Origin: Thiobacillus denitrificans ATCC 25259
GTDB lineage: Bacteria; Pseudomonadota; Gammaproteobacteria; Burkholderiales; Thiobacillaceae
NCBI RefSeq assembly: GCF_000012745.1
Contig: NC_007404.1
Span: forward strand, 2,418,001-2,482,000
DNA: 64,000 nucleotides
Direction of reading: 5' to 3'
The translations under genes and the position numbers were made by a program. Below, one piece after another: positions 4,168 to 19,929 of this stretch (positions within the stretch are counted from its first letter, which is position 1; every line of letters begins with the position of its first letter). Under the pieces are notes generated by a model. That model was not told the DNA's origin and searched no databases. It worked only from the letters and a program-made list of their open reading frames with translations.

Positions 4168-5108
4168 GCGGCGGCCGCCTTCTTTTGCGTCTGTTTTTCG
4201 ATGTTCGCGAGCACTTCGTCGGCCCAGGCACGGGGCGCCATCGGGAAGCCGAGGCGCGCCCGGCTGTCGAGATAGCTCTTCGCGACGCTGCGCGCGAGGT
4301 TGCGGATGCGGCCGATGTACGCGGCGCGCTCGGTCACCGAAATCGCGCCGCGGGCGTCGAGCAGGTTGAAGGTGTGCGCGGCTTTGAGCACCTGTTCGTA
4401 GGCCGGCAGCGCGAGCTGCGCGACCATCAGTTCCTGGGCCTTCTTTTCGTGCGCGCTGAAGGCGGTCAGCAGGAAGCCGACGTCGCTGTGCTCGAAGTTG
4501 TAGGCGCTCTGCTCGACCTCGTTCTGGTGGTAGACGTCCCGATAGGTGAGTCCGTCGGTCCATCTCAGGTCGAACACGCTCTCGACGCCCTGCAGGTACA
4601 TCGCGAGGCGCTCGAGGCCGTAGGTGATTTCGCCCGTGATCGGCTTGCAGTCGATGCCGCCGACCTGCTGGAAGTAGGTGAACTGGGTAACTTCCATGCC
4701 GTTCAGCCAGACCTCCCAGCCGAGCCCCCAGGCGCCGAGGGTCGGGTTTTCCCAGTCGTCCTCGACGAAGCGCACGTCGTTTTTCCTCAGGTCGAAGCCG
4801 AGCGCCTCGAGCGAACCGAGGTAGAGCTCGAGGATGTCGGCCGGCGCGGGCTTGAGAACGACCTGGAACTGGTAGTAATGCTGCAGCCGGTTGGGATTTT
4901 CGCCGTAGCGGCCGTCCTTGGGACGGCGCGAGGGCTGCACGTAGGCGGCCTTCCAGGGCTCGGGACCGAGCGCGCGCAGGAAGGTCGCGGTGTGCGACGT
5001 GCCGGCGCCGACTTCCATGTCGTAGGGCTGCAGCAGCGCGCACCCGCGCTCGCCCCAATAACGCTGAAGGGTGAGGATGATGTCCTGAAAGGTGGGGTTC
5101 ACGGGCAA
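4164..5108 (-). CDS. glyQ: Glycine--tRNA ligase alpha subunit
   Basis: Alpha chain of the bacterial-type glycyl-tRNA synthetase, containing the class II catalytic core. Long stretches are nearly identical to E. coli GlyQ, including [29 protein letters not shown] and [19 protein letters not shown]. Length is 314 aa from a TTG at 5106-5108. A GTG two codons later (MNPTFQ) is an equally possible start; no ATG exists in frame nearby. It is followed by glyS with a 4-base overlap. Confidence 0.96.
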
Positions 5109-12991: not shown

Positions 12992-13738
12992 TCAGCCGTG
13001 ATGCAGGACGAAGGCGACTTCTGTCGTGAAATTGCCGAGCCCGCGCGGGGTCGTCAGCGTCCAGCCGGTGTCCTTGAGAAAGCGCGTCATTTCGCGCGTC
13101 ATCTGCGGGTTGCCGCAGATCATCACGCGGTCCTGCTCGGGGTCGGGCGGCGGTAAACCCAGGCGCTGCGACAGCAGGCCCGAGCGAAAAAGTTCGCTGC
13201 CGCGCTCGGTCGTCGGAAACGGCTCGCGGGTCACCGTCGGCACGTAGTGCAGTTGTGGCTGGTCCATGGCCTCGAGTTCCTCGCGATACGCGAGTTCGGC
13301 GGCCGTCCGAACCGAATGCACGAGCACGACCGTTTCGAAGCGCGCGAAGATCGCGGGATCGCGCACGAGGCTCACGAAGGGCGCGACCCCGGTGCCGGTG
13401 GCGAGCATGTAAAGGACGCGCCCCGGCGACACGTGGTCGAGCGTCAGCGTTCCCGTCGTCTTGTTGTTGATCCAGACCCGGTCGCCCGGCTTGATCTGTG
13501 AAAGCTGACTCGTCAGCGGCCCGTCCGGGACATGGATGCTCAGGAACTCGAGATAGTCGCGGTCGGCCGTCGAGACGATCGAATAGGCACGCGCCACGAG
13601 CTTGCCTTCCTGCTTGAGTCCGATCGTGACGAACTCGCCGTTCGCGAACGAGAAATCCTGCGGACGCGTCACCGTGAAGCTGAACGTCTTGTCGGACCAC
13701 GGCCGCACCCACTGTACGGTTTGTTCGCTATAGGGCAT
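12992..13738 (-). CDS. fpr: Ferredoxin--NADP+ reductase
   Basis: A 248-residue FAD enzyme exchanging electrons between NADP(H) and ferredoxin or flavodoxin in the cytosol. The FAD-binding motif RAYSIVS, the phosphate loop region PDGPLTSQLSQIKPGD and the NADP motifs ATGTGVAPFVSLVRD and VMICGNPQMTREM are present, and the C-terminus ends FVLHHG as in the bacterial Fpr group. The ATG is at 13736-13738. It is the last gene on the minus strand before the convergent histidine-rich gene. Confidence 0.92.
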   Translation of the reverse strand: MPYSEQTVQWVRPWSDKTFSFTVTRPQDFSFANGEFVTIGLKQEGKLVARAYSIVSTADRDYLEFLSIHVPDGPLTSQLSQIKPGDRVWINNKTTGTLTLDHVSPGRVLYMLATGTGVAPFVSLVRDPAIFARFETVVLVHSVRTAAELAYREELEAMDQPQLHYVPTVTREPFPTTERGSELFRSGLLSQRLGLPPPDPEQDRVMICGNPQMTREMTRFLKDTGWTLTTPRGLGNFTTEVAFVLHHG

Positions 13739-13806: not shown

Positions 13807-15237
13807 TCAGCCCTTGATGCAGACGAGCGGCCTGAGCCTGGCAACTTTGCGCGCGAGGCCGGCCCGGTCCGCCGCGTCGACGACCGCCCTGACGTCCTTG
13901 TAGGCTCCCGGCGCTTCTTCGGCGACGCCGCGCGACGACGGGCTGCGGATCAGCACGCCCTGGGCCGCGAGTTCGTCGACGAGCGCCCGCCCATGCCAAG
14001 TGCGGCTTGCCTGGTGGCGGCTCATGGCGCGCCCGGCGCCGTGGCAGGCCGAGCTGAAGGCCAGCTGGTGGCTCGCTTCGGTACCGACGAGGATGTAGGA
14101 GGCCGTCCCCATGCTGCCGCCGACGATGACGGGCTGGCCGATATCCCGAAGTTCGGGGGGCAATCCGGGATGGCCCGGACCGAAGGCACGCGTCGCGCCC
14201 TTGCGATGGACGTAAAGACGTTTCGCCTTGCCGTCGACGGTGTACGACTCCTGCTTGCAGGTGTTGTGCGACACGTCGTAGACCAGCGCGAGGTGGGAAT
14301 CGGGGACGACATCCGCAAAAACCTGGCGAACGAGATGGGTAATGACCTCGCGATTGGCGAGGGCGCAATTCGTCGCGGCACGCATCGCGCCGAGATAGGA
14401 CTGGCCGAGCGCCGAGTCGATTGGTGCGCAGGCGAGTTCGCGGTCGGGCAGATCGATGCCGTGAGCAGGCGCCGCGAGCACCATCGCCTTGAGAAACTCG
14501 GTCCCGATCTGGTGCCCGAGTCCGCGCGAGCCGCAATGGATGCTGACGACGAGTTCGCCGACACGAAGCCGGAAGCGGTCGGCCGCGGGCACGTCGTAGA
14601 TCTGGGTCACTTCCTGCAGTTCGAGGTAATGGTTGCCCGAGCCCAGCGTGCCAAGTTCGTCGCGCTGGCGACGCTTGGCCGCCTCGGAGACATGCTCGGG
14701 CGCGGCGCCCGCGACGCAGCCGCGCTCCTCGATACGCTCGAGGTCGGCCGGACTGCCGTAGCCACGCTCGACGGCCCAGCACGCGCCGCCGCGCAGCATC
14801 GCGTCCATGTCGACGCTGTTCAGACGCAACTTGCCGCTACTGCCGACCCCCGCCGGGATGCTCGCGAACAGGCGGTCGGCCAGTTTTTGCTTGACCGGCG
14901 CAATGTCGGCGACGGTGAGGCCGGTGTGTAGCGTGCGCACCCCGCACGAGATGTCGAAGCCGACGCCGCCGGCGGACACGACGCCGCCTTCGTCGGCGTC
15001 GAAGGCGGCGACCCCGCCGATCGGAAAGCCGTAGCCCCAGTGGGCGTCGGGCATGGCGTAGGCTGCCTGGACGATGCCCGGTAGCGCCGCAACGTGGGTG
15101 ATCTGCTCGTAGACCTTGTCGTCCATCTGGCGGACCAGGTCTTCGTCGGCGAAGATGACGGCCGGCACGCGCATGCGCCCGTGCGGGCCGATCCGCCACT
15201 CGACCGCCGATGCCTGCTGCAAGCGCGCAAGATCCAT
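13807..15237 (-). CDS. rtcB: RNA-splicing ligase RtcB
   Basis: GTP- and Mn-dependent ligase joining RNA 3'-phosphate or 2',3'-cyclic phosphate ends to 5'-OH ends. The 476-residue protein has the diagnostic motifs AMPDAHWGYGFPIGGVAA, GVGFDISCGVR, the metal site SIHCGSRGLGHQ and the guanylylated-histidine motif CHGAGRAMSR. All key residues are present and the length is normal. The ATG begins one base after the stop of the Cca-archease fusion gene, so the two are certainly co-transcribed. No rtcA or RtcR regulator is nearby, so this is not the classical E. coli rtcBA arrangement. Confidence 0.96.
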   Translation of the reverse strand: MDLARLQQASAVEWRIGPHGRMRVPAVIFADEDLVRQMDDKVYEQITHVAALPGIVQAAYAMPDAHWGYGFPIGGVAAFDADEGGVVSAGGVGFDISCGVRTLHTGLTVADIAPVKQKLADRLFASIPAGVGSSGKLRLNSVDMDAMLRGGACWAVERGYGSPADLERIEERGCVAGAAPEHVSEAAKRRQRDELGTLGSGNHYLELQEVTQIYDVPAADRFRLRVGELVVSIHCGSRGLGHQIGTEFLKAMVLAAPAHGIDLPDRELACAPIDSALGQSYLGAMRAATNCALANREVITHLVRQVFADVVPDSHLALVYDVSHNTCKQESYTVDGKAKRLYVHRKGATRAFGPGHPGLPPELRDIGQPVIVGGSMGTASYILVGTEASHQLAFSSACHGAGRAMSRHQASRTWHGRALVDELAAQGVLIRSPSSRGVAEEAPGAYKDVRAVVDAADRAGLARKVARLRPLVCIKG

Positions 15238-15238
15238 G

Positions 15239-16867
15239 TCACACGTCCACGATGCACTGGGCCTGCCATTGCCCGGTTTCGTCTCTCCCTACCTTCAGGC
15301 CAGTATAGGTCGCGCCCTTGATCTCGACGACGGGTTGATGCCTGGGCGCGTCGACGGCCTCGCCCCAGGCTTTCGCGTACAAACGGCGGCGGTCGAGGTG
15401 CACCTCGAAACGGCCGAAGAGCATATGGCGAACCGCCATTTCGTAGATCAGCGCGTTGAGCCAGTCGACGAGCAGAAGCTCGTCGTCAGCGGCGTCGCAG
15501 CGTATCTCGACGCAGGTTTCCGTCGCGACCCGCGCGGGGTCGGTAATCACCGCCGTCATCGCGACGGCCACCTGCTCGAAGGCGGCCGCCAGATCGGGGC
15601 CGATGCCGCGCACACCGATGTCGGCTTCATGCGAGAACTGTTCCCAGCGGCTCGCGCGACTGCGCCGCCACCGGTTCACTGCCTCCACGCGCGCCGCGAG
15701 TATCGCTTCACGAATTCTCACCGACTCAACGCTGCGCGCGACCGCAGCCGCGTCGATCTGCTGCGCCGTGTGCAACGCCTGCCGCAGGTATTGCGGCGGC
15801 GGGTAAGTCTTGTCCGCGTAGCCGGGCCGCCCGCGGAAATCACATTCACAGGCTTCCAGAAAATGTTCGAAGCGTTCGGGGCGGCGGAAGGCATCGACGC
15901 GTTCGAGCAGTTCGACGATCGTGCGCGGTCGCAATTCGAGCGCACGATGTACGTTGCCATGATCGCGCGCTACCGCGACCGCGAGTTCGCGGCACTCGGC
16001 GGGTGCGCGCAGGCGCTCGCTCAGCGCGCGCACGAGTCTCACGCTCGCGCCTTCGTGGCCGTGGTGCCTGGGCCACAATTCGGGCGAGGTCTCGCCCTTG
16101 CCGAGGTCGTGGGTCAGGGCCGCGAAGCGCACGGCCAGGTTCGCGCCCTGCCGCGCCGCCCAGTCGATCACGAGCATGACGTGGATCCCCGTGTCGACCT
16201 CGGGATGATGCTCGGGCGGCTGCGGCACGCCGAACAGGCGGTCGACTTCGGGAAGCATCCGGGCGAGCGCGCCGCAGTCGCGCAGCACCGCGAACATGCG
16301 CGACGGCTGCGTCTCCATGAGGCCGCGGGCGATCTCCTGCCAGACGCGTTCGGCGACCAGTGCGTCGACTTCGCCGCTGTCGACCATGCGCCGCATCAAG
16401 GCATTGGTTTCCGGGGCGACGGTGAATTCGGTGAAGCGCGCGGCGAAGCGCGCGACGCGCAGGATGCGGACCGGATCCTCGGCGAAGGCCTCGCTGACGT
16501 GGCGGAAGGTCTTCGCCGCGAGGTCCGCCTGGCCATCGTAGGGGTCGATCAGGGTCCCACTTTCGTCCTCGGCGATCGCGTTGATCGTGAGGTCGCGCCG
16601 CGCCAAGTCCTCTTCGAGGGTGACCTCGGGCGCCGCATGCACGACGAAGCCCTTGTAGCCGCGGCCGGATTTGCGCTCGGTGCGCGCGAGCGCATACTCC
16701 TCGTGGGTGTGCGGATGAAGGAAGACAGGGAAGTCCTTGCCGACCGGCCGAAAGCCCGCCGCCAGCATCTCGTCGGGGGTGGCGCCGACGACGACGTGGT
16801 CGCGGTCGCTGACCTGCAGGCCCAGCAAGCGGTCGCGCACCGCGCCGCCGACGACGTAGGTCTTCAT
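15239..16867 (-). CDS. cca: CCA-adding tRNA nucleotidyltransferase fused to archease
   Basis: A 542-residue fusion. Residues 1 to ~400 are a class II CCA enzyme as in E. coli: GGAVRD (7-12), catalytic D21/D23 in [36 protein letters not shown], and an HD domain with THDLGKGE. Residues ~406-542 (DNA ~15239-15652) are a complete archease: [10 protein letters not shown] near the start, the central [12 protein letters not shown] helix, and the ending [11 protein letters not shown]...WQAQCIVDV. No stop or in-frame ATG lies at the junction ([12 protein letters not shown]), so one polypeptide is expected; an internal GTG could add a free archease. Archease activates RtcB, encoded one base downstream. 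Confidence 0.9.
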
Positions 16868-16883: not shown

Positions 16884-17921
16884 CTAGCGGCGGGCGGTCT
16901 CGCGGTAGTCCTCGTAGCGCGCGCGCGGCGTGTCGGCGCGCAGGTATTCGGGCGCGATCGCTTCGAGCGAACCGGGTTCGAAGCCGAAGACCGCCGGCCA
17001 GCCCGCGGCACAGACGTTGTCCGTTCCCATCGCGTAGTAGTTGTCGCGGGTCATCAGCTTCTTGCCGGGCTTGAACTCGAGCGCCCAGGCCTGGAAATAC
17101 GACGGCCACTTTCCAAGAGGAACGATGCGCCGGGGCTTGCCGGTGACTTCGCCGACGTAGCTCACGAGTTCCTGCAGCGTGTAGGCCCGGGGGCCGCACA
17201 ATTCGTAGGTCTCGCCAAACGTCGCGACGTTGTCGAGGCTGTCGGCGAAGGCGCGCGCGACGTCCTCGACGTGCACCGGCGCGAAGCGGGCGTCGCCCGA
17301 GCCGAGCGGCAGCACCGGAAAGCGCTTCAGCAGCCGGGCGAACATCGACAGGAAGGAATCTCCGCGCCCGAAGATGACCGAGGGGCGGAAGACCGTGACG
17401 TTGAGGCCGTAGCCGTGGATGAACTTGGGGCCGTTCAGATACCAGTTTTCGTGCTCGACGTGGCGACGGCCAGCCTCGCGCACCAGCGCCTCGCCGATGC
17501 CCTTGGAGCGCTGGTAAGCCGAACGCGAATTGGGGTCCGCGCCGAGCGCGCTCATGTGCAGCAGGCGGTGCACGTTCGCCTCGCCCATGGCATGAACGAT
17601 CTTGCGCGGCAATTCGATGTGGACACGCTGGAAATCGCCGCGCCGCGCGCTCGGCAGGTCGGCGCGCCCGACCTTGCCTTCGTGCAGGATGCCCACGAGG
17701 TTGATGACGGCGTCCATGCCGCGGAAGTGCCGGACGAGTTCGTGCTCGTCGTGGACATCGGCTTCGACCACTTCGACGGTCGGCAGCAGAATGAGCTCCT
17801 TGGCGGTTTCGCGGCGCCGGGACAGCACGCGCACATTGAGCCCGCGCGCGGCGAGCTGGCTGACGAGGTGGGTACCGACGAAGCCGGAGCCGCCGAGAAC
17901 GCAAATGCGCTGAATCTTCAT
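16884..17921 (-). CDS. NDUFA9-like NAD(P)-dependent SDR protein
   Basis: A 345-residue atypical short-chain dehydrogenase/epimerase of the complex I NDUFA9-like family. The Rossmann motif [10 protein letters not shown] is at residues 10-19, with [12 protein letters not shown] and [13 protein letters not shown] further on. Between REAG and [10 protein letters not shown] there is an extra ~21-residue segment ([21 protein letters not shown]) usually absent. Bacterial members are often membrane- or quinone-associated with unclear catalytic role. It ends 16 bases before the cca-archease start and may head that operon. Confidence 0.83.
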
Positions 17922-17964: not shown

Positions 17965-19929
17965 TTAATCGTCCGTCTGACCGAGTTCCAGAGAGCCTTG
18001 TGGTTCCGTGAGGGCCGCGAGCGGAATCCTGCGCGGCGGCACGACGCCGAGCCGGTCTTTCAACAACACCGACGGCTGGCCAAAGCGCACCGCGTAGTAC
18101 ATCGCGTTGCTCATCACCTTCTTGACGTAATCGCGCGTCTCGGCGAAGGGGATCGACTCGATGTAGACCGCGGCTTCCATCGCCGCCGTGTCGCGCCAGC
18201 GTTGCGCGCGCCCGGGGCCGGCGTTGTAGGCGGCCGTGGCAAGCACCGGCGAGCCGTCCAGCGACGTCTGCACGTGCTTGAGGTAATACGCCCCGAACTG
18301 GATATTGCGTGCCGGGTCGCGCATCTCACGCGGGTCGAATTTGCGGATGCCGAGCCGTTGCGCGATCCAGCGTGCCGTCGCCGGCATGATCTGCATCAGG
18401 CCCGCGGCACCCACGCTCGAACGTGCCACGTTGACGAAGCGGCTTTCCTGCCGCATCAAGCCGAACACCCAGGCTTCGTCGATGCCGTTTTCGCGCGCCG
18501 CCTCGCGCGCGAGCTCGCGGTACGGCGCGAGAAAGCGCAACTCGAAATCGTGCATGTCGCGCGTGCGCTCCGCGGTGTAGATCGCGCGGTCGTACCACTC
18601 CTTGCGCCGCGCCACTTCCGCGGCGGCGAGGAGCTGGGCGTCGGTAAATTCACGCGTCGCCCAGTTCCACTCGAGCGTCGCCTCGTTGCGCAAGCCGAGG
18701 TCGAGCAGCGCGAGCGCCCGTGCGATACCGGGGTCGCGCGCCATCGCAGCGAGGTCGTCGCCGCCCATCTTCACGTTGGGCAACGGCGACTGCAGCACCG
18801 GGCCGAGTTCCTCCTGCGCGAGCTGCCCGTAGTAATGGTGCTCGCGCGACAGGGCCAGAAAAATGGCGTTCGCCGCGCCGCGCGAACCATTGGCCTGCAG
18901 CGCGCGGCCGCGCCAGTAGCGCCATGTCGCCTGCGCGCGCAGGTCCTCGCTCATGCTGTCGATCACCCGTTCGACGGTTTTCCAGTCGCCCGCACGGAGT
19001 GCTGCACGCACCCACCATTCGCGCTGGAAATCGGTCGTCTCGACTTCCCCGGCGGCGGCGAACCAGGTCAATGCATTCGCCTCGTGACGCCGCGCCGCCC
19101 AGGTCGCGAGGCGCGCCCACGCCACCCGTCGCTCGCTGTCGGTGAACTGCGGCGACCAGCGGCGCAGCGCCTGCTCCGCCTGGCTCGAATCCTGGCGCGC
19201 CAGCTGGTCGAGCGCGTAGAGCGCGATCTCGCGATCGCCGCGGCGGCCGAAATCGAGCTTGCCCGGGTTCGCGAGCAGCCCGGACGGCGCCCGGGTGGCT
19301 GCGTCGATCAACGCCGCGGAAGGCTGCGGCGACTCGGCTACGGACTGGGCGACGACAGCTGCGACACGCGGGTTGGGCGCGGCGAGTGCGAGACGAAAAC
19401 GCCGCCAGATGTCTTCGCTGCCGATCAGGCCGGCCTCGATGAGTTGCGCGAACAGCGGCGAGCACGCCGATGGCATGTCGCGGCCAGTAAACCACAAGGC
19501 GACGGCTTCGCCCTGACGCGTCAGGTTTCCGCGCGCCCGCTCGGCCCGGTACGCATAACACTGCAGCGACGCATCGGCCCGGACCAGGCGCGGATACTCC
19601 GCGAGGAAGCGCTCCCACTCGCCGCGTGCGCCGAGCGATTTGAGCCAGTCCGCGCGCAATGCTTCAGCCATGCGCGTGCCGGGATAGCGCGCCAGGAAAT
19701 CCGCAATCCGCGCGTCGTCGGTGCGGCTGGCGAGCGCGAGGCGCCAGTATTCGACGAGCGGCGCGAGCACGTGGCTGGGGGGGACGTCGGCAGCCGCGCG
19801 CTCGAGCTGCGCGACCCGACGCGCCGCATACGCGCGTTGCGCATCGACTACCGCAGCGTCACCCGATGCGCCGGCGGCCGGCGTGACCGACAGCACGCCG
19901 AGCAGGAAAACCAAGACTGTTCGAAGCAT
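17965..19929 (-). CDS. slt: Soluble lytic murein transglycosylase
   Basis: Periplasmic exolytic transglycosylase cleaving peptidoglycan to 1,6-anhydro-muropeptides. The 654-residue protein has a signal peptide (first ~21 residues), a long alpha-superhelical U/L domain, and a C-terminal SLT catalytic domain. The catalytic glutamate is in MRQESRF, followed by SSVGAAGLMQIMPATA and AAYNAGPGRAQRW. Length matches E. coli Slt70 (645). It is separated from the neighbouring SDR gene by 43 bases. Confidence 0.94.
   Translation of the reverse strand: MLRTVLVFLLGVLSVTPAAGASGDAAVVDAQRAYAARRVAQLERAAADVPPSHVLAPLVEYWRLALASRTDDARIADFLARYPGTRMAEALRADWLKSLGARGEWERFLAEYPRLVRADASLQCYAYRAERARGNLTRQGEAVALWFTGRDMPSACSPLFAQLIEAGLIGSEDIWRRFRLALAAPNPRVAAVVAQSVAESPQPSAALIDAATRAPSGLLANPGKLDFGRRGDREIALYALDQLARQDSSQAEQALRRWSPQFTDSERRVAWARLATWAARRHEANALTWFAAAGEVETTDFQREWWVRAALRAGDWKTVERVIDSMSEDLRAQATWRYWRGRALQANGSRGAANAIFLALSREHHYYGQLAQEELGPVLQSPLPNVKMGGDDLAAMARDPGIARALALLDLGLRNEATLEWNWATREFTDAQLLAAAEVARRKEWYDRAIYTAERTRDMHDFELRFLAPYRELAREAARENGIDEAWVFGLMRQESRFVNVARSSVGAAGLMQIMPATARWIAQRLGIRKFDPREMRDPARNIQFGAYYLKHVQTSLDGSPVLATAAYNAGPGRAQRWRDTAAMEAAVYIESIPFAETRDYVKKVMSNAMYYAVRFGQPSVLLKDRLGVVPPRRIPLAALTEPQGSLELGQTDD

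What the first reader, a model, noticed from the sequence alone, without database searches (positions are those of the whole stretch)
13807..16867. Cca-archease fusion protein encoded one base upstream of rtcB: a compact tRNA-repair unit
The CCA-adding enzyme (D21/D23, HD domain) continues without a stop or ATG into a full archease domain (residues ~406-542). Cca alone is ~400 aa, as in E. coli, so neither part is shortened. RtcB begins one base after the stop. Archease activates RtcB; RtcB seals cleaved tRNAs; Cca rebuilds 3' ends. Fusing the end-repair enzyme to the ligase cofactor suggests a dedicated tRNA-damage repair complex, with Cca possibly recruiting broken tRNA to RtcB. I know of no described role for such a fusion; it may exist unremarked in databases.
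Basis: partly seen in the sequence, partly recalled or inferred. Interest (0 to 1): 0.85.

Follow-up and report, generated by a model that had tools for sequence, protein, structure and literature searches.

The report
CCA-adding enzyme fused to archease
In part of one group of sulfur-oxidising bacteria, the enzyme that rebuilds the tips of transfer RNAs is encoded as one protein with the helper that recharges an RNA-sealing ligase, and the ligase gene follows directly; this suggests, without proving it, that the two kinds of tRNA repair are coupled.

Summary
Window 16867-15239 (-) is one 542-codon frame: a complete E. coli-type Cca followed by a complete archease (408-542); rtcB starts one base after its stop. 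It is not a sequencing error. Of 56 genomes of the genus (Thiobacillus), 13 carry the whole in-frame fusion and a 14th has it split over two contigs. Linkers are 7-12 residues, key residues are invariant in the 13, and both halves are under purifying selection. Twelve congeners keep cca and archease-rtcB close but unfused, with a lipoprotein-like gene between. One has archease-rtcB elsewhere; 29 gave no archease match (16 of them are less complete or contaminated drafts). Outside the genus no fusion was seen among sampled genomes (archease in 75 of 399 in the order and 9 of 398 in the phylum; overlapping samples that include this genus). All 43 tRNA genes found in this genome encode CCA, so this Cca is probably a repair enzyme. 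Best reading: a real bifunctional protein co-made with its ligase. Physical tRNA hand-off is possible but not shown. Whether fusion or later fission came first is unresolved. It is a new domain architecture built from known parts.

The parts
15239..16867 (-). cca::archease fused reading frame, 542 aa, stop TGA
16508..16861 (-). class II nucleotidyltransferase head of Cca (residues 3-120; D21 and D23)
16238..16426 (-). tRNA nucleotidyltransferase RNA-binding domain (residues 148-210)
15941..16189 (-). HD phosphohydrolase domain (residues 227-309; THDLGKG and HGHE motifs present)
15647..15679 (-). junction (residues 397-407): end of Cca's last helix (382-404 in the model) running into archease strand 1 (407-412)
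15242..15646 (-). complete archease domain (residues 408-542; D416, K517, D541 and free C-terminus V542)
13807..15237 (-). rtcB, 476 aa, the only RtcB match in this genome; starts one base after the fused gene's stop
16884..17921 (-). NAD-dependent epimerase-like gene, 16 bases upstream of cca; syntenic flank
   Evidence: function label from sequence, recalled
17965..19929 (-). soluble lytic transglycosylase-like gene; syntenic flank
   Evidence: function label recalled
12992..13738 (-). ferredoxin-NADP reductase-like gene downstream of rtcB; it follows cca directly in most genomes read that lack archease-rtcB
   Evidence: function label recalled

Best explanation
It is a genuine single polypeptide with two complete activities. 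The N-terminal 400 residues are a repair-type CCA-adding enzyme with its HD phosphohydrolase. The C-terminal 135 residues are a functional archease that inserts its metal-bearing tip and free C-terminus into RtcB and reloads it with GMP. It is translated just ahead of RtcB, so end-rebuilding enzyme, ligase activator and ligase are supplied together as a tRNA-repair operon. Shown here: one conserved frame, intact residues, selection on both halves, operon layout, co-occurrence with RtcB. Inferred from the families: both activities and RtcB activation. Inferred only: that the fusion adds more than co-supply, for instance keeping the RtcB-reloading arm on a tRNA-binding protein so that sealing and CCA rebuilding act on the same damaged tRNA (I put this step alone at about 0.3).
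For: One frame in 13 of 56 genus genomes plus one split over contigs. Linker 7-12 residues, no stops; mean pN/pS 0.21 for Cca and 0.27 for archease over 78 pairs with mean pS about 0.42. No start codon with a ribosome-binding motif is conserved near the junction in 13. Catalytic motifs and archease D416, K517, D541, V542 invariant in 13 of 13. Archease order fits chemistry: its C-terminal carboxylate binds metal (PMC3973293, passages; PMC10944509, passages), so it must be the C-terminal half, as it is. AlphaFold2 model mean pLDDT 91.6; its archease part matches archease of the human RTCB complex 8odo at rmsd 1.6 over 140 columns. All 27 archease-bearing genus genomes of 56 have RtcB. 43 of 43 tRNA genes found encode CCA.
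Against: No expression or biochemical data. Twelve congeners have the same three genes unfused, and 29 of 56 gave no archease match. The junction is the least conserved stretch (pN/pS 0.63). RtcB-archease contact is transient in other organisms. Internal initiation is not excluded: a GTG lies 7-12 codons before the archease tryptophan in 10 of 13 orthologues, and in the window's own gene it has a GGAG close upstream. An ATG nine codons (10 of 13) and a GTG eleven codons (13 of 13) into archease would each lose the metal-binding D416.
Confidence: 0.75

Rival explanations
1. Incidental fusion: neighbouring operon genes became one frame and both halves work exactly as the separate proteins do, with no coupling.
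For: The same syntenic locus exists unfused in 12 congeners and without archease in others. The linker is fast-evolving. The archease-rtcB pair comes, goes and moves: elsewhere in G424 (L193), no cca beside it in the stretches read of G266 and G324.
Against: The fusion survived a mean pairwise synonymous difference of about 0.42 without any frame break in 13 genomes. cca is also next to archease, unfused, in four genomes of another family: G206, G295 and G236 with rtcB following, G135 with the contig ending inside archease. That hints at more than chance proximity.
Confidence: 0.45
2. The archease half serves Cca itself, as a specificity or solubility factor, as reported for archease with a tRNA m5C methyltransferase.
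For: Precedent quoted in PMC3973293 (passages) and PMC4275035 (passages). The helix-to-strand junction is short in the model and would hold archease close to Cca.
Against: rtcB follows one base downstream, and archease was not found without RtcB in the genus (27 of 27). The RtcB-activating residues are invariant. Unfused congeners' Cca does without it.
Confidence: 0.1
3. The halves are made or end up as separate proteins (internal start, or cleavage in the linker).
For: The linker is short and variable. A GTG 7-12 codons before the archease tryptophan occurs in 10 of 13 orthologues, with GGAG close upstream in the window's own gene only. Single orthologues have an ATG (L175) or GTG (L179) two codons before the tryptophan.
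Against: L168, L176 and L178 have no start codon in the 14 codons before the tryptophan. Apart from that GGAG, the only motif seen is GAGG before two downstream starts in L179.
Confidence: 0.08
4. The unfused arrangement is the original one and the fusion arose several times by deletion of the lipoprotein gene between.
For: Unfused is the outgroup state. A single fused clade is not rejected (AU p = 0.13) and neither is a single unfused clade (p = 0.49).
Against: In both maximum-likelihood trees fused genomes branch deepest within the genus, with weak backbone support, and junction lengths differ by at most five residues, which fits one origin.
Confidence: 0.3
5. Assembly or sequencing artefact.
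For: None found.
Against: Same fusion in 12 other assemblies at 75-79% protein identity to the window's.
Confidence: 0.01

Closest known systems
Archease-rtcB 'tRNA splicing operon' (Desai et al. 2014, PMC3973293)
   Same: archease directly upstream of rtcB; same metal-binding carboxylates and free C-terminus
   Different: archease is not a separate gene but the C-terminal half of Cca
E. coli-type multifunctional Cca (NCBIfam NF008137)
   Same: residues 1-403 match model positions 1-406 of 409 at 650 bits; NTase, RNA-binding and HD motifs intact
   Different: 135-residue archease extension at the C-terminus
Bacterial rtcBA repair operon under RtcR (PMC7790460)
   Same: RtcB ligase in a bacterium, proposed repair of cleaved tRNAs
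   Different: archease does not occur in that paper's text; here the immediate neighbours of rtcB are Cca-archease and a reductase-like gene, and rtcA and rtcR were not sought in the rest of the genome
Human RTCB-Archease activation complex (8ODO/8ODP, PMC10944509)
   Same: equivalents of human archease D51, K156, D178 and of the terminal carboxylate are present
   Different: human archease is free-standing, with its own N-terminal helix; here Cca's last helix precedes strand 1

Membership tests
E. coli-type CCA tRNA nucleotidyltransferase | full-length match over curated cut-off | tested here: met
   NF008137, 650.4 bits against 451, residues 1-403
E. coli-type CCA tRNA nucleotidyltransferase | GGxxRD, DxD, RRD and HD motifs | tested here: met
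   invariant in 13 of 13 fused orthologues; motif meanings recalled
E. coli-type CCA tRNA nucleotidyltransferase | CCA addition and HD phosphodiesterase/phosphatase activity | not testable with these tools
   HD activity recalled for E. coli Cca; two paper searches gave nothing I could cite for it
Archease (PF01951) | full-length match over gathering score | tested here: met
   131 bits against 25, profile 1-136 of 136; NCBIfam NF001617 is under its cut-off (103.3 against 126)
Archease (PF01951) | metal-binding aspartates, phosphate-binding lysine, free C-terminal carboxylate | tested here: met
   D416, D541, V542 end, K517 in 13 of 13, aligned to 4n2p and, short of the C-terminus, to 8btx
Archease (PF01951) | stimulates RtcB guanylylation | not testable with these tools
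   needs purified proteins
RtcB ligase (PF01139) | full-length match and active-site residues | tested here: met
   561.6 bits, 1-426 of 426; D95, C98, N202, H203, H234, H324, H399, K475 aligned to 1uc2; roles of C98, H234 and H324 equivalents in part recalled
Archease-rtcB operon | archease and rtcB adjacent and co-directional | tested here: met
   one base apart, same strand
Archease-rtcB operon | archease as its own gene | tested here: not met
   archease is in frame with Cca
RtcR-controlled rtcBA operon | rtcA and rtcR present | not tested
   no genome-wide search for these was run

The most novel reading that the evidence does not exclude
The fusion is a substrate-coupled ligase reloader: Cca holds or inspects a damaged tRNA, trims and rebuilds its 3' end, and the archease arm on the same chain recharges RtcB beside it. 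Anticodon sealing and CCA repair would then be coordinated on one tRNA, in a bacterial counterpart of a tRNA-ligase complex.
Probability: 0.25. Interest if true: 0.75.

Novelty: new variant of a known kind. Interest (0 to 1): 0.5.

Why it matters
The role of archease-type RtcB in bacteria is poorly known. A natural fusion of the RtcB activator to an enzyme with one main kind of substrate, tRNA, hints that tRNA is the physiological substrate in these bacteria. It also gives a natural experiment: the same locus occurs fused, unfused and without archease-rtcB in related species. Automated naming would probably hide it: the NCBIfam model for Cca passes its cut-off and the one for the archease half does not.

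Tried and rejected
Sequencing error or frameshift: rejected by 12 other assemblies.

Separate archease by internal start: not excluded but not favoured; see the rival explanation. After checking again I raised that rival from 0.06 to 0.08, because a GTG near codon 397 occurs in 10 of 13 orthologues and has a GGAG close by in the window's own gene.

Long open frames elsewhere as further fusions: G080, G248, G464, G217, G309, G020, G558, G132, G396, G011 and G206 were read; none holds Cca in the archease frame. Other archease frames outside the genus are under 275 aa, too short for Cca plus archease.

Viral carriers: the archease domain against viral contigs gave no relative (a pattern-based scan).

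A ferredoxin-NADP reductase-like gene beside rtcB suggested redox protection like PYROXD1 (name from a listing), but it follows cca also where rtcB is absent, so I do not use it.

Archease remnants downstream of cca in genomes without it: no credible match in 11 genomes checked; the best was E = 0.007 over 17 residues in G403, among many chance hits.

Direction of change: AU tests do not decide. The cassette tree places G442 and G443 inside other fused genomes while the Slt-Epimerase-Cca tree places them deepest, with archease-less G411; this may mean exchange of the cassette between species. The species tree used 40 of 56 genus genomes plus 5 outgroup loci; the cassette tree used 27 genus cassettes plus 13 outgroups.

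Lipoprotein-like gene between cca and archease in 12 genomes: no Pfam family.

Full report
WHAT IS THERE. The minus strand of the window carries, in one direction, a lytic transglycosylase-like gene (19929-17965), an epimerase-like gene (17921-16884), the fused gene (16867-15239), rtcB (15237-13807) and a ferredoxin-NADP reductase-like gene (13738-12992) (labels of the flanking genes are recalled from their sequences). The fused frame has 542 codons. Pfam places the nucleotidyltransferase head at 3-120, its RNA-binding domain at 148-210, an HD domain at 227-309 and a full archease at 408-542. One base separates its stop from the rtcB start. The genome is one 2,909,809-base contig with one archease and one RtcB match. 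Of the six closest named records, four are called Thiobacillus, one of them T. denitrificans strain RG, which has the unfused form. That the length is that of Thiobacillus denitrificans ATCC 25259 is recalled.

BOTH HALVES ARE COMPLETE. NCBIfam's multifunctional CCA model matches residues 1-403 at 650 bits (cut-off 451), while its archease model scores 103 against a cut-off of 126, so an automatic pipeline would probably name only Cca. The archease part aligns from its second residue to its last with P. horikoshii archease 4n2p. The metal- and phosphate-binding residues known from archease structures (human D51, D178, terminal carboxylate and K156; PMC10944509, passages) correspond to D416, D541, V542 and K517, invariant in 13 of 13 fused orthologues, as are the Cca motifs. 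Archease uses its own C-terminal carboxylate (PMC3973293, passages), so it can be fused only at its N-terminus, which is what is seen. RtcB keeps its metal and guanylylation residues.

THE GENUS GIVES THREE STATES OF ONE LOCUS. P0001 was searched against 56 genomes of the genus. Thirteen carry the complete fusion; G442 carries it in two overlapping pieces on two contigs. Twelve have cca and archease close together but separate. G424 has archease-rtcB elsewhere. The other 29 have no archease match: 26 of them have cca, and three (G412, G436, G447) show no cca either, so incomplete assembly plays a part. Among the 27 genomes at least 90% complete and at most 5% contaminated I count 9 fused, 4 unfused, 1 elsewhere and 13 without archease (table). 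All 27 archease-bearing genomes have RtcB at 559 bits or more; G436, G441 and G411 have RtcB at 513, 441 and 215 bits and no archease match. I read the loci of 40 genomes (the window itself included). The transglycosylase and epimerase genes precede cca in all but G442, whose contig begins inside cca; in a few genomes (up to about 900 bases in G414) the gap before cca is larger. The reductase-like gene follows in 34 of 40, whether or not archease-rtcB stands between. It is missing from the stretch in G443, G442, G411 and G424, and two stretches (G444, G450) ended too soon to tell. In all 12 unfused genomes a small lipoprotein-like gene lies between cca and archease; 7 of the 14 fused genomes have a 46-60% identical copy elsewhere, the other seven only weaker partial matches.

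ONE POLYPEPTIDE. The junction varies (7, 10, 11 or 12 residues between a fixed Cca position and the archease tryptophan) but never breaks frame. Mean pN/pS over 78 pairs is 0.21 for Cca, 0.27 for archease and 0.63 for the junction, at a mean synonymous difference of about 0.42 in the two domains. No start codon with a ribosome-binding motif is conserved near the junction. The nearest thing is a GTG 7-12 codons before the archease tryptophan in 10 of 13, with a GGAG close upstream only in the window's own gene; a start there would give a whole archease, so a blot is needed. An AlphaFold2 model from 30 rows has mean pLDDT 91.6 and pTM 0.74. Cca's last helix (382-404) runs almost directly into archease strand 1 (407-412), with lower confidence at the joint. 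The domain folds match CCA-adding enzymes and archease in the PDB. The relative placement of the two domains should not be leaned on.

HOW WIDESPREAD. Archease was found in 75 of 399 genomes sampled from the order, 45 of 100 from the family and 9 of 398 from the phylum; these samples overlap and include members of this genus. Only members of this genus had archease in a frame that contains Cca. Eleven other long frames were read and none did. Unfused cca beside archease occurs in one genus of another family: G206 (about 80 bases between the aligned parts), G295 (a glutathione transferase-like gene between), G135 (contig ends inside archease) and G236 (only the C-terminal half of archease matches). 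Two further genomes of that genus with archease, G266 and G324, have no cca in the stretch read around it.

FUSION OR FISSION. Both maximum-likelihood trees place fused genomes deepest within the genus and unfused ones nested, but backbone support is low, and in the species tree one of the deepest three genomes (G411) and the outgroup locus L034 (named Thiobacillus) lack archease beside cca. AU tests reject neither a single fused clade (p = 0.13) nor a single unfused clade (p = 0.49). Similar junction lengths favour one origin of the fusion. The genomes without archease show that the pair can be absent while cca stays.

WHAT IT PROBABLY DOES. All 43 tRNA genes that the tRNA model found in this genome encode their CCA, so Cca is apparently not needed to make tRNA ends and is probably a repair enzyme. 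Bacterial RtcB has been tied to repair of tRNA cut in the anticodon loop with 2',3'-cyclic phosphate ends (PMC7790460, passages; PMC12606134, passages). Archease promotes guanylylation of RtcB (PMC10944509) and makes it multiple-turnover (PMC10630183, passages). Joining the two in one chain, ahead of rtcB, supplies the parts together. Whether it also places RtcB reloading on a tRNA-bound enzyme is untested. Against a stable complex, archease-RtcB contact is transient and archease and RNA exclude each other on human RTCB. E. coli Cca's HD domain is recalled to hydrolyse 2',3'-cyclic phosphates; two searches gave nothing I could cite for this.

LITERATURE. Ten searches of the open library listed no title or abstract start that names a Cca-archease fusion. 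Most listed papers were not opened. I saw passages of PMC3973293, PMC7790460, PMC4275035, PMC10944509, PMC12606134 and PMC10630183. One paper that I recalled as relevant by DOI is not held. Subscription papers and domain-architecture databases were not searched, so the fusion may be noted there.

VERDICT. Real, conserved within part of one genus, a new domain architecture made of known parts. The interpretation as a tRNA-repair unit is plausible and testable; physical coupling is unproven.

Noticed in passing
L287 2013-2879 (G413) and L288 1743-2621 (G424); matches also in G426, G431, G405, G425: A 288-292 aa paralogue of Cca (two copies read) that lacks the nucleotidyltransferase head and has a degraded HD motif; the six matches are 38-41% identical to Cca residues 132-415. 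In G413 it follows a Rieske-type ferredoxin-like gene (label recalled).
   Followed up: partly
L184 3652-4065 and equivalents in L180-L191: Small lipoprotein-like gene of no Pfam family sits between cca and archease in 12 of 12 unfused genomes; related copies lie elsewhere in 7 of 14 fused genomes at 46-60% identity.
   Followed up: partly
L228 (G295), between Cca at 7427-6234 and archease at 5572-5162, minus strand: A glutathione transferase-like gene (label recalled) separates cca and archease in another family, in the same slot as the lipoprotein gene (read on L014).
   Followed up: partly
L211 2588-3828 (G217) and L232 3499-3642 (G236): Apparently damaged archease genes: in G217 the archease match ends at residue 102 and rtcB DNA from codon 91 follows; in G236 only archease residues 74-137 match.
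   Followed up: no
window 4755-4831 (-): ARAGORN calls a tRNA-Arg here that the Rfam tRNA model does not see; it lies in what reads as coding sequence (glycyl-tRNA synthetase alpha-like, recalled) and is probably false.
   Followed up: partly
G411 C3:65100-66218, G441 C13:22137-23249, G436 C110:13110-14321: Lower-scoring RtcB proteins (215, 441 and 513 bits) in three congeners with no archease match.
   Followed up: no
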